Of a stretch of DNA of 44,356 nt, positions 17,493-37,728 are shown piece after piece. The stretch comes from an uncultured Clostridia bacterium (GTDB lineage Bacteria; Bacillota; Clostridia; Oscillospirales; Ruminococcaceae). Location of the stretch: NCBI GenBank assembly GCA_947166515.1, contig CAMVEM010000004.1, positions 1-44,356 of the forward strand. The letters are read 5' to 3'. Every line of letters begins with the position of its first letter. Position 1 is the stretch's first letter. Made by a program: the position numbers and the translations under genes. The notes beneath the pieces are model-generated. The model did no database searches. It saw only the letters and a program-made list of their open reading frames with translations, and had not been told where the DNA came from.

Positions 17493-18194
17493 ATGTTAAA
17501 AGAAAGACTAAGTCAGAAAACATTTTCGGAAGCGGCAATAGAAGTTCCCGGAGAACCTCATCTTGCTTGTGTTCTGCTTCTGGATACATCCGGATCAATG
17601 AATGAGAAGAACTCGATCAGCGTGCTCAACAGGGCGCTGCGTAATTTCATCTGCGACACAGAATGGGATGACATAACCCTCGCAAGAGTCGATCTTTGTA
17701 TCATCGAATTCAACGATGAGGTACATTTGGTGCGCGATTTCGTTCCGCTAGGAAGTGCAGAACCTATCACGCTTTCGGCACATGGCATGACATCTATGGG
17801 AAAGGCAATAGATTTCGCCATAGACAAGGTCAAGGAACGAAACCGTTTCTACTACAGTGTAGGCACGCCGTGCTACCAGCCGTGGATAGTGATGATGACT
17901 GATGGTGAGCCTACCGACGATGTCGTAAATGCAAGGCAGCGGATAAAGGAAGAGGAAAACAAAGGAAGTCACGGAAAACTTAAATTCTGGAGCGTAGGTG
18001 TTCCGGGTTACAGCAGAGATATTGTCTCAACGCTGTCAAAGCGCTGCATAGAGATGACTGATAACGGCTTTGATAAATTCTTCGACTGGCTTAGGGAAAG
18101 CGTTTCTATCATCTCGGTCAGCAATGTGAACGAGATGCCGCAGCTTCCTATGCTTCCCGAAAACGCAAGAATAATACCGACGGAGTTGTGCTGA
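17493..18194 (+). CDS. vWA-domain protein, TerY/YegL-like (triad 1)
   Basis: 233 aa, a single von Willebrand A domain with an intact metal site (MIDAS): DTSGS at 31-35, Thr100 in GMTSMGKA and Asp137 in MMTDGEPTDD. There is no signal peptide, so it is cytoplasmic. Such short vWA proteins (TerY/YegL type) occur next to a PP2C phosphatase and a Ser/Thr kinase in TerY-P triads, where they are thought to act as Mg-dependent docking proteins. Exactly that order follows here: PP2C at 18247 and kinase at 19433. AAAGGAGG precedes the ATG by 8 bases. No tellurite-resistance gene (TerC/TerD) lies in the window. Confidence 0.88.
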   Translation: MLKERLSQKTFSEAAIEVPGEPHLACVLLLDTSGSMNEKNSISVLNRALRNFICDTEWDDITLARVDLCIIEFNDEVHLVRDFVPLGSAEPITLSAHGMTSMGKAIDFAIDKVKERNRFYYSVGTPCYQPWIVMMTDGEPTDDVVNARQRIKEEENKGSHGKLKFWSVGVPGYSRDIVSTLSKRCIEMTDNGFDKFFDWLRESVSIISVSNVNEMPQLPMLPENARIIPTELC

Positions 18195-18246
18195 TATTTC
18201 ACGACCCACAGCGGAATCCTGAGAAAAGCGGAAAGGAAGATATAGT

Positions 18247-19359
18247 ATGTTGGTAAAATACGGATTCAGCATAACAGGCAGATCGCATAATGGAAAGGGA
18301 TCCGGCTGTCAGGATTTTCACGCAGTGAAAAGCCTGGCGGACGGGAGGATAGTCGCAGCCGTAGCAGATGGAGTAGGTTCCGCTGCTAACAGCGGCGACG
18401 GAGCCCGGCTCGCGGTAGAAACGCTGATGTCATATGTGGAAGATAATCTTCTGCCGGAGAGCGGGAACGAAGCCATAGAGAAACTGCTGCGTAATGCTTT
18501 TGAAAAAGTGCTTGGCACAATCGAGCAGGAAGCGCAGCGCACCGGAGAGACGTTGGAGAGTTATGACACCACACTGTCTGCGGTCATCTATGACACAAGC
18601 GGTATCATCTATGCTCATTCCGGAGACGGCGCAGTGATCGTACTTACGAATGACGGCAGATATGTCTCAATAACGTCGCCTCAGAAGGGCGAGGACGGAT
18701 TTTCGGTTATCCCTCTACGGTTCGGAATAAATACATGGGAGACGGGCAGCTTTGAGGGAAGCCCGGCAGCGGTAATGCTGATGACTGACGGAGTGCTCGA
18801 AGGAATGTGTAATTACCTTCTCAGAGAGGGCGCGGAAAGCCTCGTATATGTCCCGCTCGCAGCATTTTTTGCAGATCCCGTCGGCTTTCGTACAGAAGAA
18901 ACTGCAGCCTCATCCGTTGAACTTATCGGAGATCTGCTCACATGTGAGGAGCCTGACAGCGATGCGTTCTATGACAGACTGTCGGAGATATACAAGGAAC
19001 ACCTCGGAAGCGGCGAAAAGGATGTTGTAGATCAGCTTCGCAAAAACGGTTTTGCTCCTGCGTTTATACGCCGCATAAACGACGACAGAACGCTTGTCGG
19101 TATCATTAATACAAGTTCAGCTCCTGCCGACAGAGAGCCTTCCTATTATGCCGAGCCGGACTGGAAAGCGCTTCGCGAGTCGTGGGACAGGAAAGCATAC
19201 CCTGCTTTGTTTAGCAATATTAGCAATGCCGTTACAGAGGAACCGGAACTCAAAGAGAAAGCTGGCAAGAGCTTACCCAAATGCGGCGATCGAAAAAAAC
19301 ATCGGTCTTCGCAATTTGAGTCCGCCGGTCATGAACATAACAGGATTTCCGGTCAGTAA
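18247..19359 (+). CDS. PP2C-family Ser/Thr phosphatase (triad 1)
   Basis: 370 aa. PP2C metal-binding pattern: Asp23 in GCQDFHAV, ADGVGSAANSGDGAR (40-54, Asp41), MLMTDGVLEGM (Asp181) and NDDRTLVGI (278-286). It should reverse phosphorylation by the kinase encoded next. Residues 1-290 cover the fold; about 80 further residues form a basic, low-complexity tail without a recognised motif. It is cytoplasmic, with no membrane span. AAGGAAG precedes the ATG. It lies 52 bases after the vWA gene and 73 before the kinase start. Compared with the second PP2C at 26984 it lacks the coiled coil and acidic tail. Confidence 0.88.
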   Translation: MLVKYGFSITGRSHNGKGSGCQDFHAVKSLADGRIVAAVADGVGSAANSGDGARLAVETLMSYVEDNLLPESGNEAIEKLLRNAFEKVLGTIEQEAQRTGETLESYDTTLSAVIYDTSGIIYAHSGDGAVIVLTNDGRYVSITSPQKGEDGFSVIPLRFGINTWETGSFEGSPAAVMLMTDGVLEGMCNYLLREGAESLVYVPLAAFFADPVGFRTEETAASSVELIGDLLTCEEPDSDAFYDRLSEIYKEHLGSGEKDVVDQLRKNGFAPAFIRRINDDRTLVGIINTSSAPADREPSYYAEPDWKALRESWDRKAYPALFSNISNAVTEEPELKEKAGKSLPKCGDRKKHRSSQFESAGHEHNRISGQ

Positions 19360-19432
19360 GCTCCGGATACTATTGTGCGGACGGAAAAATCATTCTGATA
19401 CTCTGTCTGTCGCATGAAGAAAGGTGATAGTT

Positions 19433-21757
19433 ATGTTATACCGTGGAACAAACGGGACTGTTTATGAAACGCTTGAACCGCCGATAGGAAAAGGCGGAGA
19501 GGGCAGTGTATACCGTGTAGCCGGTAAGTCGGGTATCGTGTTGAAGGTGCTTGTTCCGAACAGAAGGACTGATGAGCGCCGCAGAAAGCTCGCAGCCATG
19601 ATACGCTCGAAAATGCCTCAGTACGCACTCAATCAGGTGGCGTGGCCGATTGATATCGTCGGTGAGAACGGGCGTTTCGCAGGTTTCGTCATGCCGGAAG
19701 TCCGCAACAGCGAATCGCTGAATTTGATGTATACACGTAAGTACAGCTGCGGGCTTTCAGAGCGGATAACTCTTGCAATGAATCTTTGCTCCTGCATAGA
19801 TGCTGTACATAGCATAGGTCAGGTCTGCGGAGATCTTAACCCTGAAAATATAGGCGTGGATCCACACAGCGGAACAGTTACGCTCCTGGACACGGATTCA
19901 TATCACATCACGGACGCGGTTTCCGGAACTGTATTCAGGTGCGGAGTCGGCCGCCCGGAGTACCTTCCTGCTGAAGTTCAGAAGAAGATGAAGAACGGCC
20001 TCGATCTTGAGACCACACCTCTTCCTACCTTTACTATGTATTCAGACAGATTTGCGCTTGCAGTGCATATATTTGCTTTGCTGATGAACGGATGCCACCC
20101 TTTTGCCTGTGCGGCAGATCTCAGCTCTGTTTCTTCTTACGGATTTGTTTCCGTAATCGCGCCGCAGCCCACGGAAAATATTCTGAATGGCTTTTTCCCG
20201 TTCGAGAAAAAATCGAAGGGATTGACAGTGCCGTTTTATGCACCAGATTACGACTACCTGCCCGACAGAATAAGAGAACTTTTCCACAGAGCCTTCGTTT
20301 CGGGGCACAACTCTCCCTCACAGCGCCCCGATTGCGTGGAGTGGTATGCCGCGCTGTCAGAAATGAAAAAGCATCTCACATATTGTCATCAAAAACACAG
20401 TTACCCGACAGGATCAAAAAAATGCCCTTGGTGTGAGCTCAATATCAGAATGAGAACTCCTGTTACATTTCCTGCAGTTAGCGCATGTAATAGGAATGCA
20501 GGCTCAGGCATTCCGAATATACTTACCCAACACCAATTTGCAAAGCCTGTGGCGGCAGCAAAGAGAGCGTTTCACCGCAGGCTGACAGATTGGCAGAAGG
20601 TCGCGATTGGGCTCAGTTTTTCAGCTCTTGTGTTCGGTTTGATCCTGCTTTGGTTCTATAATGGATTGGACAAGTATAAACAGCACGATCAGCAGTACGG
20701 CGTTTCGTCTTCCTCAGAAAACATTCCGAAGATGATCGACTTCGACTATGACGAATATGTAAGAGATATGGGTCTCGATATATATGAACCTGATGACGAA
20801 AAGCTGATAGAAATACAGCCCGGAGAAAGACGGATGAAATCCGTAGAGGATGCAGATTTTTCAGTGACAGATATTATTTTCGAAAGTGATGTCGGATCTC
20901 AGACATTCGATTTCGTACCTGAATACGACGGAACATATTGCATAAACATTACAGAGCTTATGAATGGCACTGACGTTTCGGTCAAAGTAGAAAATGAGGC
21001 CGGAAGTATGATTGCATCCGATCGTTATTTCGGCAACAACGATAATCTTGTAATACACGACCTGACGGCAGATTCAAGGCTTACGATAACGCTCAGCTAC
21101 AGTAACGCCAGGAACGGCTGCAAACTGCATTTAGGATGTCAGAAACCGGAGCTCGACATATCTGAATACACCGACATTTACGACAGCGTTCAATTTTCGA
21201 AACAAGAGAATATATATAAGTTCACGCCTTGCATAGACGGTTTGTATTCCTTACAGATCTCCGAGCTCGCAAATTATGCGAATGTGCACATCAAGGTTTA
21301 CGACAGGCTGGGATATATCGTTGCGGAAGACAGGTACTTTTCCAGCCGTGACAGTCTCGCGGTGCATGATATGAAGGCAGGCGAGGAATACACTGTGAAG
21401 ATATTACAGGATACGGGATATAGTGCATACTGTCTGTCAGTCGGCAAGCAGAAGCAGATCACAGCTGTTACTGCAAATACTTCAGTCACCGACTGCATTG
21501 AATTCGACAGCCAGCAGAACATATACCTGCTCACAGCGGAGAGCACAGGAGAGATCACTATATCGGTCTCGGAGATCGGCGATAACGTGAACTTCCATTT
21601 CATAGTTTTGAACAGATTCGGAGAGAACGTACACACAGACAGATATTTCGGGAACGGCGACAGCTTCACACTTTGTGATACTTCACCCGGAGAAGAATAC
21701 AGGATTTTTATCTGCCAGAAAGACGGATACAGCGGGTACAAGCTTACAATTTCATAA
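19433..21757 (+). CDS. Membrane Ser/Thr kinase with zinc ribbon and three repeated outer domains (triad 1)
   Basis: 774 aa from the ATG at 19433, with GAAAGG 8 bases upstream; the GTG at 19424 lies inside that site. The kinase domain (about 15-315) has glycine loop GKGGEGSVY (19-27), Lys38, catalytic GDLNPEN (133-139: Asp134, Asn139; the usual Lys is Asn136) and DTD (153-155) in place of DFG. A probable zinc ribbon follows: Cys318 and His322, then CPWC (331-334). A membrane span at about 390-410 leads to three beta-rich repeats of about 95 residues (about 450-774), each with a strand like (N/Q)xYxxxPxxxGxY and an (E/T)DRYF motif. They resemble PPC-type domains. It is built like a PASTA kinase with a different outer sensor. 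A terminator follows. Confidence 0.85.
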   Translation: MLYRGTNGTVYETLEPPIGKGGEGSVYRVAGKSGIVLKVLVPNRRTDERRRKLAAMIRSKMPQYALNQVAWPIDIVGENGRFAGFVMPEVRNSESLNLMYTRKYSCGLSERITLAMNLCSCIDAVHSIGQVCGDLNPENIGVDPHSGTVTLLDTDSYHITDAVSGTVFRCGVGRPEYLPAEVQKKMKNGLDLETTPLPTFTMYSDRFALAVHIFALLMNGCHPFACAADLSSVSSYGFVSVIAPQPTENILNGFFPFEKKSKGLTVPFYAPDYDYLPDRIRELFHRAFVSGHNSPSQRPDCVEWYAALSEMKKHLTYCHQKHSYPTGSKKCPWCELNIRMRTPVTFPAVSACNRNAGSGIPNILTQHQFAKPVAAAKRAFHRRLTDWQKVAIGLSFSALVFGLILLWFYNGLDKYKQHDQQYGVSSSSENIPKMIDFDYDEYVRDMGLDIYEPDDEKLIEIQPGERRMKSVEDADFSVTDIIFESDVGSQTFDFVPEYDGTYCINITELMNGTDVSVKVENEAGSMIASDRYFGNNDNLVIHDLTADSRLTITLSYSNARNGCKLHLGCQKPELDISEYTDIYDSVQFSKQENIYKFTPCIDGLYSLQISELANYANVHIKVYDRLGYIVAEDRYFSSRDSLAVHDMKAGEEYTVKILQDTGYSAYCLSVGKQKQITAVTANTSVTDCIEFDSQQNIYLLTAESTGEITISVSEIGDNVNFHFIVLNRFGENVHTDRYFGNGDSFTLCDTSPGEEYRIFICQKDGYSGYKLTIS

Positions 21758-21864: not shown

Positions 21865-22209
21865 ATGGATATAACCAGAATTTACGATTCGGTATCATAT
21901 AACGACGCACTTGTATCAGCGCTTAAGGAAGCAATAAGACTCAGCGGTAAAGGGATAGTCAAAGACGGCGAGCGCATATACGCAATGCTGACAGACCTTT
22001 TGCCGGGCCAACAGTATGAAACGGAAAGAAGAAGGGTCAAAACTGCATACAGATGCGGCTCTGTGGAAACCCTTCTGTCAAATTATGCCAGCGGCATCGA
22101 CACTGCTACGTGTATTGATGCTGCTGCGCAAGACATGACAACAAAGATGGATATAAGTGAGGAAGTTGCTGTGTCAACAATGGCTAAATTCGCTAAGGCT
22201 CTTGACATG
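21865..22209 (+). repeat. Duplicated coding segment, copy 1
   Basis: It aligns without gaps to 23592-23936 (offset 1727 bases), with very similar DNA over the last two thirds. It encodes residues 1-115 of the shared helical domain. The downstream parts of the two genes are unrelated, so only this module was duplicated or kept. Confidence 0.8.
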
Positions 22210-23550
22210 AAGCTTCCTGTTGCCACGTTCAAGCCAATACTTCCAACAAGCCAACAGCGTTCTGATCATTACGAGGAACATCCACCAAAACCGAAAAAAC
22301 CTGTGACGATCAACGAAGTATGGCCAGACAACATGTCCGGTGACTCAGGCCTTAACAGAAAAGGCAATGGCGCATCACGTTCCTCCACCAATACAATAAA
22401 CTCTTTAGACAATTCCAATAATCAGTCTTCAGTTTACGCAGGCGGTCAAAAGCGCAGAAATAAAACGGGTTATGTGATCTTACTTGCAATTTTCGTTTGT
22501 TGTGTAGCAGGAATAATAATCGTGAAAAATAACATTATGTCGTCGGAAGACCGCACTGAGATTACAAATACAACTTCGGTGACGGAAACTGACCAGTATT
22601 CGGTATATGCGACAACTTCGTCAGTTTATACAACATCTATGACGACATATTACGATGATAACGAATGGACATCAAATTATTCTTACGATGAGAAACAGAC
22701 GACAACTTATTCTGATGACGAAAAACGCACGACAACTTATTCCGAAGTTGAGGAATCGGCAACGACAACTGCGGCAGATAAGTCATTTACAGCAGATACT
22801 ACCATACCGATAACACCACCTGCTGTCGATAGTGAAAATATCTTTTCGTCGGGAGAAATTCCGCCGGTCAACCATAATGAACTTTTAAAAACCGAGCAGA
22901 TGCTGTTAAGTTATATCAAGGGTGAAGGGCGCCTTGACAAAAGCAGAATGGTCGATATAACAAAGCTTAAGATCTATGGCACGGATTTTGTGTGTGTTTC
23001 AGCAGGAAGCGTCAGCGGAAGTACGGTCACTGTGGATATGTGGAACGATGATTCATACAGGGCTGATGGCGAATGGTTCAAAGACGGAAATCTGATTGAT
23101 ATTTCATTTGTCAGATATATGCCTTCACTCTCTGATCTGACTGTAAGGTACAGCAACCTCAGCGATCTTTCGCCGCTTGCAGATATGAGAAAGCTGACCG
23201 TGCTCGATCTGTTCTATAACAATGTAACTGACATTTCACCGCTTACAGGTCTGACGAAACTGGAGATGCTTAATCTTGGCGAAAACAGGATTTCAGATTT
23301 TTCACATATCTCAAAGCTTACAGCACTTAAATGGCTGGCGTTAAGAAACGCTGGGATTACTGATCTCAGTCCTGTTTCCGGACTAAAGTCGCTGACTTAC
23401 CTGTTTCTGTTGGGCAACAATATAGACGATGTTTCACCGATAAAAGCGCTGAAGAACCTGAAAAATCTCAATATCAAAGATACCGGCATTTCTGATTCGG
23501 ATATACGCAGCCTGCGTTCTGCTCTTCCTGACTGTGAGATCATCTCTTGA
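21865..23550 (+). CDS. Membrane protein: shared helical domain, TM, leucine-rich repeats
   Basis: 561 aa. Residues 1-117 are a helical domain shared with the proteins at 23592, 25781 and 26036, with core AMLTDLLPGQQ (40-50), ERRRVKTAYRCGSVETLLSN (54-73) and GIDTATCI (77-84). A polar linker leads to one membrane span (202-221), so the helical domain is inside and the rest outside. The outer part has a Thr/Tyr-rich stalk with short repeats (TTTYSDDEK-like, about 265-310) and then about five internalin-type 22-residue leucine-rich repeats (about 390-550; for example LTVLDLFYNNVTDISPLTGL). LRRs normally bind proteins. There is no signal peptide; the TM acts as signal anchor. It opens an operon with the MORN protein. 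Confidence 0.82.
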   Translation: MDITRIYDSVSYNDALVSALKEAIRLSGKGIVKDGERIYAMLTDLLPGQQYETERRRVKTAYRCGSVETLLSNYASGIDTATCIDAAAQDMTTKMDISEEVAVSTMAKFAKALDMKLPVATFKPILPTSQQRSDHYEEHPPKPKKPVTINEVWPDNMSGDSGLNRKGNGASRSSTNTINSLDNSNNQSSVYAGGQKRRNKTGYVILLAIFVCCVAGIIIVKNNIMSSEDRTEITNTTSVTETDQYSVYATTSSVYTTSMTTYYDDNEWTSNYSYDEKQTTTYSDDEKRTTTYSEVEESATTTAADKSFTADTTIPITPPAVDSENIFSSGEIPPVNHNELLKTEQMLLSYIKGEGRLDKSRMVDITKLKIYGTDFVCVSAGSVSGSTVTVDMWNDDSYRADGEWFKDGNLIDISFVRYMPSLSDLTVRYSNLSDLSPLADMRKLTVLDLFYNNVTDISPLTGLTKLEMLNLGENRISDFSHISKLTALKWLALRNAGITDLSPVSGLKSLTYLFLLGNNIDDVSPIKALKNLKNLNIKDTGISDSDIRSLRSALPDCEIIS

Positions 23551-23591: not shown

Positions 23592-23936
23592 ATGAATGTT
23601 GAAACGATAGTAAATTCAATATCTGATAATGACGCACTGGTCAAGGCACTCAAAGAGACTGTAAGACTGGGTGGAAAAGACATAATAAGAGACGGTGAAC
23701 GTGTGTATGCAATGCTGACAGACCTTTTGCCTGGCAAACAGAATGATGCGGAAAGAAGACGAGTCAAAACTGCATATATGTGCGGCTCTGTCGAAACGCT
23801 TTTGTCAAATTATGGCAGCGGCATTGACACTGCTACGTGTATTGAAGCATCTGCGCAGGACATGGTTACAAAGATGGATATGAACGAGGAAGTTGCCATA
23901 TCAACAATGGCAAAGTTCGCAAAGGCGTTTGGTATG
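23592..23936 (+). repeat. Duplicated coding segment, copy 2
   Basis: Partner of 21865-22209, encoding the N-terminal helical domain of the MORN protein. The runs coding for LLSNY and for GSGIDTATCIE differ from copy 1 by only a few bases, so the duplication or gene conversion is recent. Confidence 0.8.
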
Positions 23937-25712
23937 AAGGTCAAAACAGTTGCCGAAATACCGGAAACGAAGCAGCCGTCAAAATCCGTTCAGCCGGAGA
24001 ATATTAACAGCACACATACAGACAAGAGTTTGGCAGCACAGTTCAGCTGGACTTCAACAAACTCAGATACGGATAAGACTGTACACAAGGATCGGGATAC
24101 GTTATATTGGGGAACAAGTAAGACCATGCCGAAGGATCCGGTTCAGACAAAATCTGATACAGACAGTGATGCTGACAGCACAGGAAAGAGCCTGTCTGAT
24201 TTTTATCACAGTGATTCCTCGAATTCACGCAGATCGTCATATTGCTTGATAGATGATGATGATGATAATGATGATGATAATGATGATGATCAGAGTTCAG
24301 CTCATAATGGACGCTCTGGCTTGATTACCGGAATTATTCTATTGGTTATATTTGTTGTTGGTGGTATTGTGTTGGCAAATATACTGCCTGATTACAATAA
24401 AATTGATGGTATAACTTATAATACCGTATCGCCCCTGACAGATACATATGTAACGACAACAACCACACCTGCAGTGCAAACGACAGCGAAAACAACTAAC
24501 CGAACTATTGCCTCAACAACTGAATCACAAATAACTACAGAAGCGACTACAATAACTACTGCAGCTGAAATAACTTCACAAACTACAACAATAAATGAGC
24601 GCATAAAAAAGTATAATAACGGCACTTATGAGGGAGATCTTGTTAACGGCCTCAGGGTAGGCTATGGCGTTATGGCCTATAGTAATGGAAACGTATATGA
24701 GGGCGAATGGGTAAATGATAATCGTGAAGGCTATGGATTAATGAAATATTCGGATGGCTTTTTCTCTGGATATTGGGTCAATGACAGGCGAAATGGTACA
24801 GGAACATTCACATGGACAAATGGCGATAAGTATGACGGCAATTGGGTCGATGACAAAATTATAGGTAAAGGTAAATTAATCTGGGCGAATAATGGAGAAG
24901 TGTACGAAGGGGATTTTGTCAACGGTATTAGAGAAGGTAAAGGAAAATATACGTGGTCTAATGGTAATGTTTATGAAGGTGATTGGGTCGATGGCAACCG
25001 CCAAGGCTATGGGTTAATGAAATATTCCAACGGAAGGATTTATGATGGTTATTGGAAAAATGACAAGCGTAATGGGAATGGAAAACTTACATTATCAAAT
25101 GGAGATATATACGAAGGAGATTTTGTTAATGACAAAAAACAAGGAAAAGGAACGTATAAATGGGCTGATGGGGATGTATATTACGGTGAACTGGTAAATG
25201 GCGACTTCGAAGGGTATGGAGTCATGAATTATTCCAACGGAAACGTATATGATGGTTATTGGAAAAACAGCAAGCGTAATGGGAATGGAAAACTTACATT
25301 ATCAAATGGAGATATATACGAAGGAGATTTTGTCAATGACAAAAAACAAGGAAAAGGAACTTATAAATGGGCTGATGGGGATGTATATTACGGCGACTGG
25401 GTCGATGGTCAGAGAACAGGTCAGGGAAAACTGACAGAGACCGATGGCTCGTACTATGAGGGTTCCTACAAAAACGGTTTAAGAGACGGAAAAGGAAAAT
25501 GGCGCTTCTATTTTGACGACGGCACCTGGGAAGAAGGCGAAGGCGAATGGAAGGAGAATAAACGCAACGGATATGTTAGTGCCACTAAGTACTACACGGA
25601 CGGTACATGGGAAGTAAGAAATGGAGTTTACAAGGATAATGTCATGCAAAGCGGCACTAAAACGCGTTATGATGCGAGCGGCAAAAAAGTAAAGACCACA
25701 AATGTCGGATAA
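23592..25712 (+). CDS. Membrane protein: shared helical domain, TM, MORN repeats
   Basis: 706 aa. Residues 1-115 closely match the LRR neighbour (AMLTDLLPGKQ, ERRRVKTAYMCGSVETLLSN, GIDTATCI). A Ser/Asp-rich linker holds a run of about 12 Asp/Asn residues (221-233) before the membrane span (243-264). Outside is a Thr-rich stalk (about 280-340), then about thirteen MORN repeats of 23 residues (about 345-690; for example NVYEGEWVNDNREGYGLMKY). MORN repeats often bind lipids or proteins or serve as long spacers. The gene starts 41 bases after the LRR gene, with AAGGA upstream of its ATG. It ends at a strong bidirectional terminator. The MORN part is AT-richer than the flanking genes. Confidence 0.83.
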   Translation: MNVETIVNSISDNDALVKALKETVRLGGKDIIRDGERVYAMLTDLLPGKQNDAERRRVKTAYMCGSVETLLSNYGSGIDTATCIEASAQDMVTKMDMNEEVAISTMAKFAKAFGMKVKTVAEIPETKQPSKSVQPENINSTHTDKSLAAQFSWTSTNSDTDKTVHKDRDTLYWGTSKTMPKDPVQTKSDTDSDADSTGKSLSDFYHSDSSNSRRSSYCLIDDDDDNDDDNDDDQSSAHNGRSGLITGIILLVIFVVGGIVLANILPDYNKIDGITYNTVSPLTDTYVTTTTTPAVQTTAKTTNRTIASTTESQITTEATTITTAAEITSQTTTINERIKKYNNGTYEGDLVNGLRVGYGVMAYSNGNVYEGEWVNDNREGYGLMKYSDGFFSGYWVNDRRNGTGTFTWTNGDKYDGNWVDDKIIGKGKLIWANNGEVYEGDFVNGIREGKGKYTWSNGNVYEGDWVDGNRQGYGLMKYSNGRIYDGYWKNDKRNGNGKLTLSNGDIYEGDFVNDKKQGKGTYKWADGDVYYGELVNGDFEGYGVMNYSNGNVYDGYWKNSKRNGNGKLTLSNGDIYEGDFVNDKKQGKGTYKWADGDVYYGDWVDGQRTGQGKLTETDGSYYEGSYKNGLRDGKGKWRFYFDDGTWEEGEGEWKENKRNGYVSATKYYTDGTWEVRNGVYKDNVMQSGTKTRYDASGKKVKTTNVG
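24252..24290 (+). repeat. GAT/AAT trinucleotide tract
   Basis: Thirteen in-frame GAT or AAT codons encode an Asp/Asn run on the inner side of the membrane span in the MORN protein. Length change by slippage in units of three bases would keep the frame. Confidence 0.85.
25024..25400 (+). repeat. 207-base tandem duplication inside the MORN region
   Basis: 25024-25193 recurs at 25231-25400 (period 207 bases, 69 codons, three MORN units) with only scattered differences. Both copies share GGAAAACTTACATTATCAAA. This shows recent repeat expansion. Confidence 0.85.
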
Positions 25713-25720
25713 TAAACGAT

Positions 25721-25748
25721 CGCGCCGGGAACGAAAATCCCCGGCGCG
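25721..25748. terminator. Strong bidirectional terminator between the convergent operons
   Basis: The perfect 9-bp stem CGCGCCGGG/CCCGGCGCG (25721-25729, 25740-25748) has a 10-base loop. It lies 9 bases after the stop of the MORN gene and 33 bases beyond the end of the minus-strand operon. Confidence 0.75.
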
Positions 25749-26020: not shown

Positions 26021-26035
26021 ATATTTTATTCTCTT

Positions 26036-31057: not shown

Positions 31058-31083
31058 TTTAGTTCCTCCTGTTTTCAATATGT

Positions 31084-32052
31084 TCAGATCACATTAACGG
31101 TCTGTTGATAATTGATGTTTATCATACTGTAATGCAGCCTTGCAAGGTTGTCATCATGATCTTTTTTAATCTGAGCCTTAGGATAGCGCCTCTTTATTTC
31201 ATTTGCTGTAAGAAAAGCTATTGCGCCGGCCATTCCCTCACATTCCTGCGGCGATGAAAGATCGCCGTAACGCCTGAGCTGGTTCTTTCCGAAGCTGAAA
31301 CACTCCTGTTCCTTTTCAAGTCCCTTGCTGTCGAAAAAAAGGATGGCGTCGTTAGTGACCATATATACAAAATCTGCCTCAATATATTTGAGATGTATCC
31401 CGTTATCCGCCTTCCGGATTATTTTGTCAAATATATCGGCGCAATAACCGGTAAGCGGTTTGAGTATTTCGGAATTTTTCAGGACTCTATAGCAGTATTT
31501 CTCAACTTCGAGATTATATTCTTCGATGTCATTGTAAGTCTTCATGGCGGCATACTGCTTGATATTATAGATCCATTCGTTGAATTGGTTTGCAAGTACG
31601 CCCTTCCTTTGAGTGAATTCGGCTACCATTTTCTCGTTTTCCAGGATCATATCCTGGTTCATTTCAAAAATCTTATTATATTTATTGTTTTTTCTGCGGT
31701 AAATTAAGAAATATGATACTGCTACAGCCACAGCGATGTCCGCAATAAATAAAACTAACATCAGCCAAGTATTCTTGACGGTAAACAGTATCAGAATTAA
31801 GCCGATCACGGCTATCGTTACTGCATCACCCGCGGCGGATTTCCTCATATCGCCGGGATCGAACATATGTTTGATTTTGTCCTCCTGCTTCTTGCTTGTG
31901 CTTTCTTCAAGCATACGGATTCTGTCGTCGATTTCGCCGATATGCAGCAGTCTGAGATTTTCTATATTCTTAATAACCGTTTCGGCTTCTGTCTTATTTT
32001 TTTCAACTATACGGTCGCGCTGATTGATGAGAAGGTCATTTATACTTTTCAT
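31084..32052 (-). CDS. Coiled-coil membrane protein A with shared C-terminal domain
   Basis: 322 aa from the ATG at 32052, set by GGAGG 6 bases upstream. It has a coiled coil (about 5-60), two membrane spans (about 76-92 and 97-118), a second coiled coil (about 120-175) and a C-terminal domain. The end of that domain, SSPQECEGMAGAIAFLTANE and following residues, matches the neighbouring protein at 32069 (QSECEGYAGAVAKTVSADIK). The fold is not recognised. Both termini probably face the cytoplasm. It lies between the membrane protein at 32069 and kinase 2 (26 bases to the kinase start). It may be a membrane partner of the FtsK-like ATPase. Confidence 0.75.
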   Translation of the reverse strand: MKSINDLLINQRDRIVEKNKTEAETVIKNIENLRLLHIGEIDDRIRMLEESTSKKQEDKIKHMFDPGDMRKSAAGDAVTIAVIGLILILFTVKNTWLMLVLFIADIAVAVAVSYFLIYRRKNNKYNKIFEMNQDMILENEKMVAEFTQRKGVLANQFNEWIYNIKQYAAMKTYNDIEEYNLEVEKYCYRVLKNSEILKPLTGYCADIFDKIIRKADNGIHLKYIEADFVYMVTNDAILFFDSKGLEKEQECFSFGKNQLRRYGDLSSPQECEGMAGAIAFLTANEIKRRYPKAQIKKDHDDNLARLHYSMININYQQTVNVI

Positions 32053-32068
32053 TTCCTGCCTCCGTCTG

Positions 32069-33034
32069 TCAGCCCAATATGATCTCAAGAGTCACATTTG
32101 CATCATTATGGCTTGTGCGGACTTTTACAGTATTGCTTTTGTACTTGGCTTTGATATCCGCAGAAACTGTTTTTGCTACTGCACCTGCGTAACCCTCACA
32201 TTCAGATTGGTCTGCCGGGCTTTTCATATTGTGTTCCTCAAATACATAGGTCAGAGCACCATTCTCAATGCTCCCTTTGTTGTACAGAAGCTTGTTGCGC
32301 TTTATCTCAAAATTGATGGTATTGCTTCCGTGTACAAGGCCCTGTCCCGCCGTACCGACGATCTGTTTTGAGAGTTCTTTGCAGTCCGGACTGTTTATGT
32401 ATCTTTTGAATGCGTCTTCTGCATTGCGGTCGTATTGTGCTATCTGTTTCTTGATCTTCGCATCTGCGTCAGCAAAAAGCTTTGACAGAAATGCATCTTC
32501 CTGTTGATCGGTAGAGTACCAGATCTGCCTGTTGGTTTTCTGGATCTCAGCGTTTTGGGCATAGATGTTATTCGCGTAATCGTTTTCTAACGTCATTTTC
32601 GCTGCCGCATTAGTACCGCTTTTGACTATTCCTGAGACTATGATGCCTACCCCGTACATGCCGGCCAAGAAACCGATCACACCGCCTATTATTGCAGTTA
32701 TAGTACCGTTATAACCGCCTAATGAATAACCAATAATAACTCCGGCGACCATACACACAATAACGGATATCATGTGCGCTTTGGAACCATCATTTTTCGC
32801 GAGAGATTCAAATTTTTGCTTAAGCTGTTCCTCTCGCTCGTTGAGCTCATCCAACTTTGATTTGCCGCCGTTTTCGTTCTTCTGACGCTGATCGACTGCG
32901 TTTGAACAGCTTATACTGATGCAGTTATATTCGAGATATTCGTCGGAATTCGGAGTTGCAAGGTTCGAAATCACCTCTGCATAGGTGCTTATTCGTATCT
33001 GTTCCTTTATCCGGCTGTCAGTTACAGGGCTCAT
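32069..33034 (-). CDS. Coiled-coil membrane protein B with shared C-terminal domain
   Basis: 321 aa from the ATG at 33034, with AAGG 6 bases before it; a GTG 5 codons earlier lies within that site. An N-terminal helical region precedes a coiled coil (about 58-82), then two Gly-rich membrane spans (about 88-107 and 110-137), a helical middle and a C-terminal domain that includes QSECEGYAGAVAKTVSADIK and ends in VTLEIILG. The layout and last domain match the next gene, so the two are diverged paralogues and may form a heteromeric membrane complex. The family is not recognised. Confidence 0.75.
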   Translation of the reverse strand: MSPVTDSRIKEQIRISTYAEVISNLATPNSDEYLEYNCISISCSNAVDQRQKNENGGKSKLDELNEREEQLKQKFESLAKNDGSKAHMISVIVCMVAGVIIGYSLGGYNGTITAIIGGVIGFLAGMYGVGIIVSGIVKSGTNAAAKMTLENDYANNIYAQNAEIQKTNRQIWYSTDQQEDAFLSKLFADADAKIKKQIAQYDRNAEDAFKRYINSPDCKELSKQIVGTAGQGLVHGSNTINFEIKRNKLLYNKGSIENGALTYVFEEHNMKSPADQSECEGYAGAVAKTVSADIKAKYKSNTVKVRTSHNDANVTLEIILG

Positions 33035-33064
33035 TATATTCCTTTCCACGCTCTGCCTGACGGC

Positions 33065-33361
33065 TTACCAATTGAGCAGTTCTTCCATTGTTTTGGCTTT
33101 CTTTTCAAAAAGGTCATGTGTTGTATTAAGTGCTTCGATGCACTTGTCAGACACCTTTTTGATATCAATGACGCAGGACTCTATATTGTCCTTGAATTCT
33201 CCGAAACCTTCGCTGATACCAAGCAGACCTTGCGTCAGTGTTGACGAGTATGTGGAAATATTATTAGCGGATTTCTGCATTTTTCTTGCAAGTTCTCTCA
33301 TCTGATCAACGCCGTTCTGACTAAGATCGTACTTAGTGCCGGTTACTTGTGCTTCAGCCAT
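33065..33361 (-). CDS. Small helical protein, WXG100-like (pair 1)
   Basis: 98 aa, predicted as two helices. Size and layout recall WXG100/ESAT-6 secretion substrates, but the central turn reads ISEGFGEF rather than WxG. It aligns with the 129-aa protein at 33960: both share a helix like ELARKM/RLAENV, GEF in the centre, and an end like KKAKTMEELL/KKAESIEEIL. GAAAGGAG lies before the ATG. It is encoded just before the two membrane coiled-coil proteins. Calling it a secreted type VII-like substrate is inference from context. Confidence 0.7.
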   Translation of the reverse strand: MAEAQVTGTKYDLSQNGVDQMRELARKMQKSANNISTYSSTLTQGLLGISEGFGEFKDNIESCVIDIKKVSDKCIEALNTTHDLFEKKAKTMEELLNW

Positions 33362-33375: not shown

Positions 33376-33636
33376 TCAGTTTTTACCTGATTCTTCGATT
33401 GCATCAATCTTTTTTCCGACGCTCTCTGACATTTTTAATGCCAGTTCTGCAGACTTTCCTATGAGGATCATATATTCACTTACCTTATCAATTGCTTTGG
33501 AGCTGTAGGTATCGTTATTCATGTTTTGTGAGCAGTTGTCCATTGCCGCTTTTAGCTGGGCGGCGATCGTCGCCATGTTATTTGAATAATTGAGCAGAGA
33601 CCGTTCAATATTGCGCATAGCATTCGTATCAAGCAT
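33376..33636 (-). CDS. Small helical protein, WXG100-like (pair 2)
   Basis: 86 aa, two helices around NCSQNMNNDTYSSKAID (about 34-50). The motif NMxNDxYSxKA is shared with the 84-aa neighbour at 33654 (CAANMENDVYSQKA) and sits where WXG100 proteins have their turn. There is no signal peptide or membrane span. GAGAAAAAACCG precedes the start, so the ribosome site is weak. Spacing in this block is short (14 and 17 bases), as in one polycistronic message. Confidence 0.68.
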   Translation of the reverse strand: MLDTNAMRNIERSLLNYSNNMATIAAQLKAAMDNCSQNMNNDTYSSKAIDKVSEYMILIGKSAELALKMSESVGKKIDAIEESGKN

Positions 33637-33653
33637 AACGGTTTTTTCTCCTG

Positions 33654-33908
33654 TCAGTTGTCAATATGGTCATATTTGTACTTGATCTTTGCTTTAAGAT
33701 CCGCAGCCTGCTGTACCGTGCTTTTCATAAGCAAAGTATTTTCATACAGCTCATATTTGGCTTTCTGGCTATATACATCGTTTTCCATATTTGCTGCGCA
33801 GTCAGCGTAATTCTGCTTTATGATCTCTATTTCCTGAGCCATATCATCGATAAAATGCTGCAGCAGATCTATTGCTGTTTTGAGATCGTCCTTGTTTGTA
33901 AGTGCCAT
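33654..33908 (-). CDS. Small helical protein, WXG100-like (pair 2)
   Basis: 84 aa, two helices around NYADCAANMENDVYSQKA (33-50), the same turn motif as the 86-aa neighbour; the rest has diverged. It lacks the YxxxD/E tail signal of actinobacterial substrates. AGGAGG lies 8 bases before the ATG. The preceding gene (129 aa) ends 51 bases upstream. It may form a heterodimer with its neighbour. Confidence 0.68.
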   Translation of the reverse strand: MALTNKDDLKTAIDLLQHFIDDMAQEIEIIKQNYADCAANMENDVYSQKAKYELYENTLLMKSTVQQAADLKAKIKYKYDHIDN

Positions 33909-33959
33909 AATATATATCCTCCTATAATTACTGCATTATTTAGAATTTCTTTCTAAGTG

Positions 33960-34349
33960 TCATAACATCCGATCATTGTTATTCCCGTAATAATGTGAAT
34001 TCATGTTTCGTCTTGCGACCGACCCTGCCGATCCTGTGCCTTCGCTGGTGGTGCCGTCTGCGTCGCACATAACACCGTCGGCCATCAGTATTTCTTCTAT
34101 AGATTCGGCCTTTTTCACAAGACTGTTGCATATATGCTCTGCAGACTGATCTATCATTGAGGATGCAGATTCAAGCGCGATGAGCATATCATCAATCTTT
34201 GCGTAAAACTCTCCCAATTCGTTGCTGTTTTTTTCAACGGAAGCACGAAGCTTTTTGGCCTCATCTGAAGCCATATCAGTAAGTATTATCACGTTTTCAG
34301 CAAGCCGCCGTAATTCGTTGGCTCCTTTATAGCTCAGAGCGTATACCAT
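33960..34349 (-). CDS. Small helical protein, WXG100-like with Gly/Ser tail (pair 1)
   Basis: 129 aa: helices at about 8-90, then a flexible Gly/Ser/Asn tail (…SEGTGSAGSVARRNMNSHYY…). The helical part aligns with the 98-aa protein at 33065, including a central GEF and the ending KKAESIEEIL. Its ATG overlaps the stop of the ATPase gene by one base (TGATG), and the AGGAGG site lies inside the last ATPase codons. Translation is therefore coupled, a sign that the two products work together. Confidence 0.72.
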   Translation of the reverse strand: MVYALSYKGANELRRLAENVIILTDMASDEAKKLRASVEKNSNELGEFYAKIDDMLIALESASSMIDQSAEHICNSLVKKAESIEEILMADGVMCDADGTTSEGTGSAGSVARRNMNSHYYGNNNDRML

Positions 34350-37300
34350 CAGAATCCTCCTAAATTTGCTACTGGTTTTCCGTTCTTATCGAGCTTCCAC
34401 AGACCAAGCGGAACGCCTGGCTGTAAATGTGGGTGCATAGTCACAGCTCGCTTAGAATCGGTATACAGGAATACGCCCTTGTCGATACGAGGAAATTCTC
34501 CGCTGCCCAGCACCATATATTTTTCATCCTTTGACAGTGCAAACGCCATCCTGTGTACAAAATTTCCGTTATCGATACCCGAGTCCCTCATGTCTCGCGC
34601 CTGCTCAAAGCTGAACAGGAAATGAGTGTCCATTTTCGGCGCGTTGCTCAGTAGCTGTTTGAAACTGCCGCGGGCATCGAACGCTGGAACGTCGTTCAAG
34701 CTTTTATTATATTCTGCGACCTGCTCGTTGTAAAGTTTTATCAACCTTCGTCTTTCATCCGGATCCGTAACCGCTTTTATATCATCAAGAGACATCACCT
34801 TCGCCGGTTCCGGTTGCGGGGGATTTTCTTCGATATCGCTCATCTCAGAGGCTATAAGCTCATAATCAAGCACTATTATCAGCTGAGATAAGGTCTTTTT
34901 CTCCTTGACCCGGCTTCCTATTTCTGTGATCCGCCGACATATTTCATCTGTTCCGACTGCACAGTCAAATCGATCCCACACCTGTTTTCTGTACTTCTGG
35001 AATAACCGCGAAGACGGATCTGCCCAGACCCAGATCTGTCTGTCGCTGCGTGCATAGCTGTCCAGTATCGACATCATCACCGAGACACGTTCTTCCGGTT
35101 CTCCGCCTACGAGCAGTATGTTTTCTGCACTTGACTTCTTCAGGAAGAACGGGAAAACGCTGTCCAGCGATCTCGGCACTCCGGGATATATCACGGTGTC
35201 ATATTCTGTGATCGAGTTTGCTTCTTCAAATGCTTTCCGTGCGGGCTCCTGATCCTTGAAGGTTTTCGGAGTCATTCCATCGACCACGACAGGCTTCTTG
35301 GCAAAGTATTGGCTGTCATTCCTGGAATCATAATCATCGGTAGGCTTGAGCTGCTGATCGAGAAACTTTATAAGCTCCTTTATCTGACTGCTTTCGACAT
35401 ACATATTTCTGAATTTTCCAAGCTCGGCAGTGCCGTCCTCGCCTCTCCGCTTGTATAGCGTGTAATATGGCTGCATATTGTTCATCCAGCCGCTTATCTG
35501 CGCCGTTATGTATTCGGATGGAAGCATGAGCGTTGCTTTTATCTCGTTGTAAGTATTCTTCAGAGCAAACCGCATCTGGATCTGTTCGCGTGCTGCGTCT
35601 GTCAGGCCGGGAAGGCCTTCGGAATACGACTGGCTCGCGAGGATGAACTTGAGACCCACACCGCCGCCCTGCAGGAAAAGGTTCTCGAACATTGTTGCGT
35701 AAGATATACCGTTTTTATAGCCGAGCTTCAGTACCTGCGCCATCTGCGCGAACTCATCGATTATGACGAGTATCACCGGTATTCTCACTTCCGGAGGTAT
35801 ATCATTTATATTCTGATATCCGTTCTGTGCAAAGAACATTTTGCGTCGTTCGAGCTGCTCGGTAAGCTTATCTATCAGGTCGAACACAAGTTCCTGCGAA
35901 TTCTCCAGCAGAACGTATTTTACATGGGGCGGAACAGGGTCGGTATACTGTTTGAATTCCACCATTTTGAAATCTGCCAGCCACAGTTCAAGCTCATCCG
36001 GATGATAATTCATCATAAATCCGGATATCATTGTATGAAGAAGACTCGATTTACCGGATCTTGAAGCGCCCATCATATATGCTGCGAAGTTTTCGTTTTC
36101 AAAATTGCAGAATATCGTCTCGTCGTCATCGTTTATGGCAAACGGAACAGAGATCGAAGCTCTTTTGCCGGTTCGTCTTGAAGGGGCCTTCATCTTATAG
36201 CGATCGAAATATTTTGATCCGATCTGTTTCGGGTTAAGCGCTGCAATAATGCTGTCAGAGAACTCTTTCGGGATTTTGATGCTGCAGCCGTGCCAGGTGA
36301 ACGGCATTATCTCATCTCCGCAGAGAGTATGGAATGCTCCGCTGTCGTCGCATATTATCTGAAAACAGTTCTTCTGGGTGCTGGTCAGCTTTTTTTCGGC
36401 CCCGACGCCCATAGAACCGCGGTTAACAAGAGATAGTTCTATTAAAACAAGCCCGAATCTTGCGAGATTGTTTCTCAGATATGAAAAAGTACCACTCTGC
36501 GCATTGTGCTCGGAGATAACGATCACAATACGGAACGGTATGCGGCGGTTTTCTGAATTGGCGCTGTTGAAACTGCGGATATCGAGACTGCCGAGCTTAG
36601 CATCCGTTGTGTGGTAATAGCTTTCGAGCTGCTGTATGTATCGGTTGCATTCATCTGCAGTCTGAGGAATATTGTCAATAAGGTTATTCTTTCCCTCAGT
36701 AAAGTAATAGAGTTCGCTGACAGCACTTGCGTTGTAATGTACCCTGTCAATGACGGAAACACGTAACGAGGCAGCTCCGTATAATCTCAGCTGGTTCAGG
36801 ATAAGCGCCTGCAGTCCGGAATAGACCTCACCGCTGTTTTCTTCGGTATATTCGGCGGAGATATACGATCCTGCCTCGGAGCGGAATCCGCGCGGGCAGA
36901 AAACGCTGCCTGTGTGTTCATTGAAAGCATTGCCGAAGCGTTTCTTGAGGGCAGGGTACAAAGCTTTCGGTGCTTCGACAGGGTAATTGTTTCCACCTAT
37001 TAGCATCATTGGCAGATCGGTTCTGAACCCGTTTGGGGAGACTAAAAGTTCCGGCGTGATGTTGTAGAGGTTTACAGTATCGTTGATATCAGCTGCCAGC
37101 TTGCATATTTCGGGGCTGTCGATCAGAGCGCGGAGCCTTGCTTCTATCTTGTCACCTTCACGTATACAGTCCTGTTCCGCCTGATGAACGGCGGCATTTC
37201 TGCAGTCGGAGATACTTGCTTTTCTGCGCTCGTTTTTCGCTATCTGGTCGTCGATAAAAGCAGTATATGACTTACAGAGAGAGATAATGAGGTCAGCGTA

Positions 37301-37627
37301 TGTATAGACTCCGGTTGCTCTGTAGTTATCCGAGCTGCTCTGTTCGAGCTCGAAAAGTCTGTCCATATCAGGTTCGAGCATTTCTTCATTGCCGAGAGGT
37401 CTGCCCACAGTATGTTCGGCTGCAATTTTACGGTATGCCGCTATGTTTTCCTTCGTGGAGTTCAGCTCGGCTATGCGCTCATTGCATTTATTAGTTTCCG
37501 CAATCTGGTTTTCATCCGGGCCGCTGTCTGAGCGGATGCAGTTTATCTTCTCCTTGAGTTCTTTGATCTCGCTCTTAGCTTTCCGGAATTCTGAACGGAG
37601 TCTGCTGATTTCTTCGGAAAATCCCAT
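34349..37627 (-). CDS. FtsK/EssC-like secretion-type ATPase without membrane spans
   Basis: 1092 aa from the ATG at 37627 (GAGG 6 bases upstream; a GTG at 37639 would add 4 codons). Order: coiled coil (about 5-70), helical region, an ATPase-like first domain without a P-loop (about 200-450), a canonical FtsK/SpoIIIE domain (about 475-760) with Walker A GASRSGKSS (520-528) and Walker B VILVIIDEFA (618-627), and a third degenerate domain (about 825-1070, LLVGGEPEERV). Three ATPase-like domains in series are typical of the EssC/EccC motors of type VII secretion. Unlike those, I see no membrane span or N-terminal FHA domain. It is the first gene of the long minus operon and is coupled to a WXG100-like gene. 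Confidence 0.82.
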   Translation of the reverse strand: MGFSEEISRLRSEFRKAKSEIKELKEKINCIRSDSGPDENQIAETNKCNERIAELNSTKENIAAYRKIAAEHTVGRPLGNEEMLEPDMDRLFELEQSSSDNYRATGVYTYADLIISLCKSYTAFIDDQIAKNERRKASISDCRNAAVHQAEQDCIREGDKIEARLRALIDSPEICKLAADINDTVNLYNITPELLVSPNGFRTDLPMMLIGGNNYPVEAPKALYPALKKRFGNAFNEHTGSVFCPRGFRSEAGSYISAEYTEENSGEVYSGLQALILNQLRLYGAASLRVSVIDRVHYNASAVSELYYFTEGKNNLIDNIPQTADECNRYIQQLESYYHTTDAKLGSLDIRSFNSANSENRRIPFRIVIVISEHNAQSGTFSYLRNNLARFGLVLIELSLVNRGSMGVGAEKKLTSTQKNCFQIICDDSGAFHTLCGDEIMPFTWHGCSIKIPKEFSDSIIAALNPKQIGSKYFDRYKMKAPSRRTGKRASISVPFAINDDDETIFCNFENENFAAYMMGASRSGKSSLLHTMISGFMMNYHPDELELWLADFKMVEFKQYTDPVPPHVKYVLLENSQELVFDLIDKLTEQLERRKMFFAQNGYQNINDIPPEVRIPVILVIIDEFAQMAQVLKLGYKNGISYATMFENLFLQGGGVGLKFILASQSYSEGLPGLTDAAREQIQMRFALKNTYNEIKATLMLPSEYITAQISGWMNNMQPYYTLYKRRGEDGTAELGKFRNMYVESSQIKELIKFLDQQLKPTDDYDSRNDSQYFAKKPVVVDGMTPKTFKDQEPARKAFEEANSITEYDTVIYPGVPRSLDSVFPFFLKKSSAENILLVGGEPEERVSVMMSILDSYARSDRQIWVWADPSSRLFQKYRKQVWDRFDCAVGTDEICRRITEIGSRVKEKKTLSQLIIVLDYELIASEMSDIEENPPQPEPAKVMSLDDIKAVTDPDERRRLIKLYNEQVAEYNKSLNDVPAFDARGSFKQLLSNAPKMDTHFLFSFEQARDMRDSGIDNGNFVHRMAFALSKDEKYMVLGSGEFPRIDKGVFLYTDSKRAVTMHPHLQPGVPLGLWKLDKNGKPVANLGGF

Positions 37628-37699
37628 ATCTGACCTCACCGGTAATAATTAATCTGAGTTTTTGTCAAAATGCATAATAATCTCGTTTTTCCTTTTCAT

Positions 37700-37728
37700 A
37701 TTATACATCATTATAGTATAGTTGTCAA
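37700..37728 (-). promoter_or_regulatory. Perfect sigma-A promoter of the long minus operon
   Basis: On the minus strand: TTGACA (37728-37723), a 17-base spacer and TATAAT (37705-37700). Both boxes and spacing are consensus. The leader to the ATG is about 65 bases. It drives the operon running down to 25781. Confidence 0.8.

What the first reader, a model, noticed from the sequence alone, without database searches (positions are those of the whole stretch)
17493..37728. Two kinase/phosphatase/vWA triads joined to a type VII-like motor: a candidate new system
Seen: two convergent operons, each with a vWA protein, a PP2C phosphatase and a Ser/Thr kinase. The minus operon also carries an FtsK/EssC-like ATPase, four small helical proteins and two membrane coiled-coil proteins; the plus block carries LRR and MORN surface proteins. 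Known: vWA-PP2C-kinase sets (TerY-P triads) are described with tellurite-resistance genes, and FtsK-type ATPases with WXG100 proteins define type VII secretion. Inferred: phosphorylation gates a secretion-like or membrane remodelling machine, with one membrane-bound and one soluble triad. No TerC/TerD, EsaA/EssA/EssB or toxin gene is present, so neither known system fits fully.
Basis: partly seen in the sequence, partly recalled or inferred. Interest (0 to 1): 0.92.

Follow-up and report, generated by a model that had tools for sequence, protein, structure and literature searches.

The report
Kinase-controlled type VII-like export cluster
A bacterium carries a stand-alone gene cluster in which a soluble FtsK-type motor, paired helical small proteins and a kinase/phosphatase switch sit together, as in relatives whose small proteins are fused to toxin-like domains; it is a new variant of an already described type VII-like arrangement.

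Summary
In detail: both operons, six triad proteins with their key motifs, the FtsK-type ATPase, four small helical proteins and two 2-TM coiled-coil proteins are present. The minus operon is a real unit. In 8 close loci (window included) a type B hairpin follows the ATPase in 8, type A hairpin and 2-TM protein in 7 (the eighth contig ends). In 6 of 8 a B hairpin is fused to a papain-like or zincin-like C-terminus directly behind the ATPase; three carry TerD genes. The window has neither. The ATPase has one P-loop and no TM helix, unlike membrane EccC/EssC, and groups with the EssC-like ATPase of a CoCoNuT/TerY-P locus. That arrangement is in print (PMC11090510, PMC4978471). The plus operon is a separable triad: 5 of 5 relatives lack the ATPase in the DNA read. 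Yet its LRR and MORN proteins carry an unnamed helical adaptor domain shared with the minus operon, which elsewhere accompanies minus-type kinases. Best reading: a compact type VII-like export machine gated by phosphorylation; export is inferred. New variant of a known kind.

The parts
34349..37639 (-). FtsK/EccC-type ATPase, 1096 aa: N-terminal helices (about 7-173, coiled-coil-like), one intact P-loop (524 GASRSGKS) and Walker B, flanking segments without P-loop, no TM helix
   Evidence: PF01580 E 1.9e-18; EccCa/EssC models best but far below cut-off; helices from a low-confidence model; hydropathy and P-loop count
33960..34349 (-). small protein s1, type B helical hairpin with a short linker-like tail; occupies the place where relatives encode a B-domain toxin
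   Evidence: alignment; profile match E 3.3e-24
33654..33908 (-). small protein s2, type A helical hairpin (conserved C-x-x-N-x-x-x-D turn)
33376..33636 (-). small protein s3, type A helical hairpin
33065..33361 (-). small protein s4, type B helical hairpin, WXG100-like but without WXG
   Evidence: TIGR03930 E 0.014, below cut-off; its family to WXG100 by hhalign 82%, controls 0.2-0.7%
32069..33049 (-). two-TM coiled-coil membrane protein
   Evidence: family alignment A6; TM 93-111 and 120-138
31084..32088 (-). two-TM coiled-coil membrane protein, the form nearest to that of relatives
   Evidence: E 1e-21 to 1e-26 in L034-L037, L039, L062; TM
29684..31078 (-). Ser/Thr kinase without TM, with C-terminal zinc-ribbon-like CPAC...CPLC
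   Evidence: PF00069 E 7.8e-15; TM scan; motifs
28746..29633 (-). vWA protein with MIDAS motifs
   Evidence: PF00092 E 2.1e-8
26984..28699 (-). PP2C phosphatase with long C-terminal extension
   Evidence: PF13672 E 6.9e-31 over residues 12-264
26036..26965 (-). adaptor-domain protein with a two-TM hairpin
   Evidence: adaptor profile E 6.9e-35; TM; domain model pLDDT 89
25838..26029 (-). decayed fourth adaptor-domain copy at the tail of the minus operon
   Evidence: profile E 3.8e-4; frame ends early in stops
25721..25748 (-). 12-pair terminator-like stem between the convergent operons
   Evidence: 26 such sites in 16 kb, 13 expected; the only one with 12 pairs, 9 of them GC
17493..18194 (+). 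vWA protein of the second triad
   Evidence: PF00092 E 3.8e-6
18247..19359 (+). PP2C phosphatase of the second triad
   Evidence: PF13672 E 1.3e-35
19424..21757 (+). kinase of the second triad, with a TM helix and, by eye, three repeated domains behind it
   Evidence: PF00069 E 4.3e-5; TM 393-415; sequence printed; relatives
21865..23550 (+). adaptor domain, TM helix, LRR
   Evidence: PF12799 E 5e-20; adaptor E 9.6e-36; TM
23592..25712 (+). adaptor domain, TM helix, MORN repeats
   Evidence: PF02493 E 1.3e-73; adaptor E 4.4e-38; TM

Best explanation
The minus operon (26036-37639) is a stand-alone, compact type VII-like machine of the soluble EssC-like kind. Shown: a one-P-loop, TM-less FtsK/EccC-type ATPase; two A-type and two B-type hairpin proteins conserved with it; a conserved two-TM coiled-coil protein; a complete kinase/vWA/PP2C switch; in relatives, toxin-like domains fused behind the B-type hairpin. 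Inferred: A and B hairpins pair; a B hairpin is the signal by which the (presumably hexameric) motor takes its cargo, toxin or bare hairpin, to the membrane, where the two-TM coiled-coil protein docks the motor; kinase and phosphatase switch assembly on and off, with the vWA protein as scaffold and adaptor-domain proteins (LRR, MORN, BspA-type or Sel1 ends) as input modules. In this genome the toxin slot holds only the hairpin s1 with a linker-like tail, and no further B-domain gene was found, so the cargo here is the hairpins themselves or unknown. The plus operon is a second, membrane-facing triad of separate origin whose LRR and MORN adaptors may feed the minus-operon switch.
For: Nearest solved relatives of the ATPase family are a chain named FtsK/SpoIIIE (4nh0, 1.1e-10; T. 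curvata EccC by recall), YukB (1.5e-10) and EccC5 (6.8e-7). Gene content: type B 8 of 8, type A 7 of 8, two-TM protein 7 of 8 close loci; the miss each time is L038, whose contig ends, and G153 has both on another short contig. B-domain toxin-like genes in 6 of 8: PF15644 over cut-off in L034, L035 and one of two in L039; PF13529 just over cut-off in the other L039 gene; HELGH/HEFGH without a Pfam match in L036 and L037; L038 like L039 by eye, not scanned. Type B domain: 21 strong matches in 8 genomes, 19 on ATPase contigs, 2 on G153:C252; G000 has only s1 and s4. No EssB in 9 of 9 genomes, control rings; G000 has no WXG100 or YukD match. Triad: 4 of 8 loci adjacent (window, L034, L035, L037), 1 of 8 on the same strand 33 kb away beyond mobile-element-like genes (G181), 2 of 8 on another contig (G151, G153), 1 of 8 none (G154). 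Adaptor: 14 strong matches in 13 genomes, 13 at a locus with a 29684-type kinase; most of these genomes had been chosen for such kinases or ATPases.
Against: I saw no paper that shows secretion by a soluble EssC-like system, and the authors of PMC11090510 expect a different mechanism because TM helices are missing. No envelope channel was found in the operon. The window has no toxin domain. Five of ten genomes searched hold true WXG100 genes elsewhere, and four of those five a membrane type VII ATPase beside them, so their B-domain toxins might use that route. The small proteins lack WXG, and their profiles show no WXG100 chain among the 60 best PDB rows listed. My profile comparison did not show that the segments beside the active ATPase domain are degenerate ATPase domains, and the ATPase model is too poor to use (pLDDT 58). 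G181 has the kinase but no full adaptor match, G154 neither.
Confidence: 0.58

Rival explanations
1. Intracellular defence device: on a stress or phage signal the TerY-P-type switch makes the soluble motor deploy or release hairpin-tagged toxins inside the producing cell, as a part of the cell's own defence, with no export.
For: ATPase has no TM helix; a relative sits in a CoCoNuT-like locus with CARF protein, AAA protein and TerY-P genes (L124); in L039 (and by eye L038) a STAND-type NTPase with TPRs lies upstream; TerY-P protected P. aeruginosa against phage (PMC10889362, passages).
Against: The conserved two-TM protein next to the hairpins, WXG100-like domains on toxins, and small ORFs in the immunity position after two toxins (88 and 78 aa; no Pfam match) fit delivery to neighbours better.
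Confidence: 0.25
2. The plus operon is an unrelated neighbour: an independent membrane-sensing triad that lies beside the type VII-like operon by chance.
For: Plus-type kinases in G148, G066, G041, G068 and G003 have no such ATPase in the DNA read, 5 of 5 (G041 and G003 are cut by contig ends); no plus-type triad in the DNA read at the 7 other close ATPase loci.
Against: Its LRR and MORN proteins carry the adaptor domain of 26036 (LRR/26036 E 5.8e-13, LRR/MORN 70% identical); elsewhere that domain accompanies minus-type kinases and gave no match in G066 and G148, where one search found only a plus-type kinase; G041, G003 and G068 hold both triad types, on separate contigs, the adaptor with the minus type.
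Confidence: 0.4
3. Ter-type envelope or metal stress response: motor and hairpins remodel the membrane and do not export toxins.
For: TerD genes lead the operon in L034, L035 and L037 (Pfam for one gene each in L034 and L035; the others 76-88% identical to these) and lie near a related ATPase on a Rhodococcus plasmid (L125).
Against: Toxin-like domains behind the ATPase in 6 of 8 loci; no TerD match among the 20 window proteins scanned with Pfam.
Confidence: 0.12

Closest known systems
Soluble EssC-like ATPase/WXG100 modules linked to TerY-P triads in Type III-A CoCoNuTs (PMC11090510; Anantharaman et al. 2012 as cited there)
   Same: N-terminal coiled coil, no TM, only the central ATPase domain with Walker motifs, two small WXG100-type proteins, TerY-like vWA, PP2C and kinase with zinc ribbon; the ATPase falls on the same side of the tree as the Caballeronia example
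   Different: No McrB/McrC match or CARF protein among the window proteins scanned; no WXG motif in the hairpins; extra two-TM coiled-coil proteins and adaptor-domain proteins; in relatives TerD genes and B-domain toxins in place of the nuclease fusion described there
T7SSc (PMC11217815)
   Same: FtsK/EccC-type ATPase without FHA, WXG100-type protein, kinase, cytoplasmic vWA and PPM phosphatase
   Different: Here the ATPase is TM-less with one P-loop, the minus-operon kinase has no TM, no YukD match; an EspG-like gene was not searched for
TerY-P triad (as described in PMC11090510)
   Same: TerY-like vWA, PP2C and kinase with C-terminal zinc ribbon
   Different: Two triads here; no TerD among the scanned window proteins; coupled to a type VII-like motor
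H. pylori TerY-P/WxG/FtsK island and 'WXG100 secretion system' cluster (PMC4978471, passages)
   Same: WxG and FtsK described as a minimal type VII set with TerY-P; a separate cluster set holds WxG100, FtsK/SpoIIIE, a nuclease and a DnaK homologue
   Different: Another phylum and other partner genes; no comparison of sequences made here

Membership tests
Type VII secretion system (as in PMC11217815) | FtsK/EccC/EssC-family ATPase | tested here: met
   best models and solved relatives are EccC/EssC-type, but far below NCBIfam cut-offs, and the tree puts it apart from canonical T7SS ATPases
Type VII secretion system (as in PMC11217815) | ATPase is membrane-bound | tested here: not met
   Hydropathy scan: no TM in window ATPase; 24 of 28 compact relatives none, 4 of 28 one borderline window (1.62-1.68); 5 of 5 canonical T7SS ATPases 2-4; 6 of 6 FtsK 2-6
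Type VII secretion system (as in PMC11217815) | several C-terminal NTPase domains | tested here: inconclusive
   One P-loop in 27 of 28 compact ATPases (L049 has a second pattern match), 2-3 in 5 of 5 T7SS ATPases; whether the flanking segments are inactive NTPase domains was not shown
Type VII secretion system (as in PMC11217815) | WXG100-family small protein | tested here: inconclusive
   Type B: TIGR03930 E 0.014, PF10824 over cut-off for the L045 member, hhalign 82% to true WXG100 against 0.2-0.7% controls; but no WXG motif in 36 of 36 type A and B rows and no WXG100 among the 60 PDB rows listed. Type A: 25%
Type VII secretion system (as in PMC11217815) | YukD/EsaB-like protein (lacking only in T7SSd) | tested here: not met
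   PF08817: none in G000; 2 of 10 genomes in all, on contigs other than the ATPase's; G000 is 83% complete
T7SSb | EssB/YukC | tested here: not met
   PF10140: 0 of 9 genomes incl. G000, B. subtilis control rings
T7SSc | membrane kinase, vWA and PPM phosphatase beside the ATPase | tested here: inconclusive
   Kinase, vWA and phosphatase present in the operon, but the kinase has no TM
T7SSc | EspG-like TscG | not tested
   No search made
TerY-P triad | adjacent vWA, PP2C and kinase with C-terminal zinc ribbon | tested here: met
   Minus triad: CPAC and CPLC in 29684. Plus kinase has one CxxC only
Soluble EssC-like/WXG100 module (PMC11090510) | coiled-coil N-terminus, no TM, only one ATPase domain with Walker motifs, small helical partners | tested here: met
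   the coiled coil rests on a low-confidence model
CoCoNuT | McrB/McrC-type core | tested here: not met
   No such domain in the 20 window proteins scanned
Secretion system of any kind | ATPase-dependent export of cargo | not testable with these tools
   Needs a secretome

The most novel reading that the evidence does not exclude
A phosphorylation-switched toxin exporter without any known type VII membrane component: a soluble one-P-loop EccC relative docked by a two-TM coiled-coil protein, loading toxins through an A/B hairpin pair, and fed by interchangeable LRR, MORN, BspA-type or Sel1 sensors that plug into the TerY-P-type switch through an unnamed helical adaptor domain; in the window two switches, one facing outwards and one cytoplasmic, share those adaptors.
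Probability: 0.33. Interest if true: 0.76.

Novelty: new variant of a known kind. Interest (0 to 1): 0.52.

Why it matters
Soluble EssC-like/WXG100 modules are described in print as likely secretion systems; in the passages I read, nuclease proteins beside them are named as possible cargo, but no hairpin-fused toxin and no membrane partner. These loci offer both: toxin-like domains fused to one hairpin type directly behind the ATPase, and a conserved two-TM coiled-coil protein. That makes the question whether a TM-less EccC relative exports protein directly testable in an isolate. The adaptor domain gives a handle on what TerY-P-type switches sense.
Full report
What is there. The window is one whole contig (C4) of a 3.09 Mb, 83% complete genome. 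The minus operon runs ATPase, s1 (type B), s2 (A), s3 (A), s4 (B), two two-TM coiled-coil proteins, kinase, vWA, PP2C, adaptor protein, with gaps from -20 to +51 bases. The plus operon runs vWA, PP2C, kinase, LRR, MORN with gaps of 41-107 bases. A strong terminator-like stem lies between the convergent ends (25721-25748), next to a decayed fourth copy of the adaptor domain (25838-26029). Both kinases, both phosphatases and both vWA proteins keep their key motifs.

The motor. Among NCBIfam models the ATPase is nearest EccCa, EssC and EccCb, yet scores 62, 54 and 49 bits against cut-offs of 509, 778 and 347. A profile of seven sequences finds in the PDB first a chain named FtsK/SpoIIIE, then YukB and EccC5. 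It has one P-loop and no TM helix. Of 28 compact ATPases (window included) 27 have one P-loop and 24 no TM window, 4 one borderline window; five canonical T7SS ATPases used as controls have 2-3 P-loops and 2-4 TM windows. In a tree of the central domain (39 rows) canonical T7SS ATPases and FtsK translocases fall on one side of a 100/98 split and the compact ATPases on the other, with the Caballeronia plasmid example on the compact side. That Caballeronia locus reads vWA, WXG100, three hypothetical genes, FtsK, CARF protein, vWA, PP2C, kinase, AAA protein, which fits the extended Type III-A CoCoNuT layout of PMC11090510 (section 10 read whole). A related ATPase on a Rhodococcus plasmid lies near two TerD genes. 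The tree has long branches and a midpoint root.

The small proteins. Sorted by alignment they form two families: type B (s1, s4) and type A (s2, s3), related to each other by profile (80%). Neither has WXG in any of 36 rows. Type B resembles true WXG100 proteins by profile comparison (82%), with three control comparisons at 0.2-0.7%; type A does not clearly (25%). In eight genomes the type B domain gave 21 strong matches (E below 1e-12): 19 on a contig that carries the ATPase and 2 on a 4.1-kb contig of G153 that also holds a type A hairpin and the two-TM protein. In six of the eight close loci a type B domain begins a longer protein directly behind the ATPase: papain fold toxin 1 (L034, L035, L039), a C39-like peptidase (L039; L038 has the same form by eye, not scanned), or a protein with a zincin-like HExxH and no Pfam match (L036, L037). 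In the window this place is held by s1, which ends in a short linker-like tail.

The switch. In L034, L035 and L037 the order is two TerD-like genes, kinase, vWA, PP2C, adaptor with BspA-type LRR, ATPase, B-domain toxin, hairpins, two-TM protein, with other genes set in. In L034 the first TerD-like gene is cut by the contig end. The window has the same parts in another order. In G181 kinase, vWA and PP2C lie on the same strand of the same contig 33 kb away, with mobile-element-like genes (recombinase, reverse transcriptase; judged by eye) between. In two of eight the triad is on another contig (G151, G153). G154 has no such kinase, and its ATPase follows a STAND-type NTPase. The 29684-type kinase is in 12 of 397 sampled Lachnospiraceae, so 6 of 7 non-window ATPase genomes is a clear excess, though these genomes are not independent (binomial 5e-9). 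Triads with adaptor but without ATPase in the DNA read exist (L089, L090, L092): the switch is a module used by more than one machine.

The adaptor. A helical domain of about 110 residues, matched by no Pfam family in the members scanned, begins the LRR and MORN proteins of the plus operon and 26036 of the minus operon, and recurs in relatives fused to BspA-type LRR, Sel1-like or other ends. In 13 genomes, most of them chosen for their kinase or ATPase, it gave 14 strong matches; 13 lie at a locus with a 29684-type kinase and one (G152, 50 kb away) does not. Four of the 13 genomes gave none: G066 and G148, where one search found only a plus-type kinase; G154, without such a kinase; and G181, which has the kinase and only a partial adaptor match. 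The model is good (pLDDT 89, pTM 0.80). The adaptor is the only evidence here that ties the two operons together.

The plus operon. Relatives of its kinase at E 1e-8 occur in 6 of 149 genomes including its own. At the five other strong places vWA, PP2C and kinase stand together in four; in G003 only the kinase is seen, at a contig edge, and in G041 the kinase is cut by the contig end. None has this ATPase in the DNA read. G041, G003 and G068 also hold a minus-type triad on another contig.

How it most likely works. Shown: parts, conservation, toxin fusions in relatives, absence of TM in the ATPase, presence of a conserved two-TM partner, absence of EssB in nine genomes and of WXG100 and YukD matches in this genome. 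Inferred: A/B pairing, cargo recognition by the B hairpin, docking through coiled coils, gating by phosphorylation, and export. Five of ten genomes searched carry true WXG100 genes elsewhere. Four of those five also show a membrane type VII ATPase beside them, so in them another route for the toxins cannot be excluded; the window's genome showed no WXG100.

Against the literature. T7SSc-j: abstract, Methods, Results and Discussion of PMC11217815 read. CoCoNuT paper PMC11090510: section 10 whole and passages. H. pylori islands PMC4978471: passages. P. aeruginosa defence PMC10889362: passages. PMC7159879: passages; it reports kinase, PP2C and vWA sets in another conflict system. Anantharaman et al. 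2012 was not seen; it is cited through those papers. A search for TerD with type VII secretion gave one paper, on Streptomyces vesicles, seen in the listing only. Listings and an empty one search showed me no paper on B-domain toxins or the adaptor at such loci, but I opened only the five papers named; the library holds open-licence papers only. Hence: new variant of a known kind, of moderate interest.

Noticed in passing
L040-L055 (for example L045:3-13339): A second set of compact ATPases: in L045 it comes with a Tubulin_2 protein (PF13809), a protein of about 1,430 residues with TM segments, a two-TM protein and two hairpin proteins; genes of like length stand at several other loci of the set. 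A possible tubulin-linked type VII-like system.
   Followed up: partly
window 40086-40700: C-terminal part only of an ADP-ribosylglycohydrolase (PF03747), 64% identical over 109 residues to a longer gene inside the ATPase locus L037 (16068-17087); perhaps an immunity remnant.
   Followed up: partly
L033 (G016) 7557-12559: A compact FtsK that ends in Sel1-like repeats (by eye), behind several small helical proteins, some with a W-N-D turn.
   Followed up: no
L063 and L064: A third set of compact ATPases with a vWA-like membrane protein and small helical proteins (by eye); L063 also has a kinase-like gene (E 2e-8 to 29684).
   Followed up: no
L038:128-3112 and L039:6778-9774: A STAND-type NTPase with TPR repeats directly upstream of the ATPase (Pfam for L039; L038 by eye), in the place of the kinase triad.
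   Followed up: partly
L133 (Rhodococcus plasmid) 3881-11645: Compact FtsK with Hsp70, TPR and GrpE genes as annotated, recalling the DnaK/WxG100 set of H. pylori.
   Followed up: no
window 17065-17093 (-): Perfect TTGACA-17-TATAAT promoter-like site with TG extension ahead of the unassigned gene 15066-17045.
   Followed up: no
L035:18818-19882, L037:21242-22294, L062:6170-7246, L089:13546-14616: A transglutaminase-like protein (PF01841 in L035; L089 matches it at 1e-184, L037 and L062 by eye) recurs at these loci, with and without the ATPase.
   Followed up: partly
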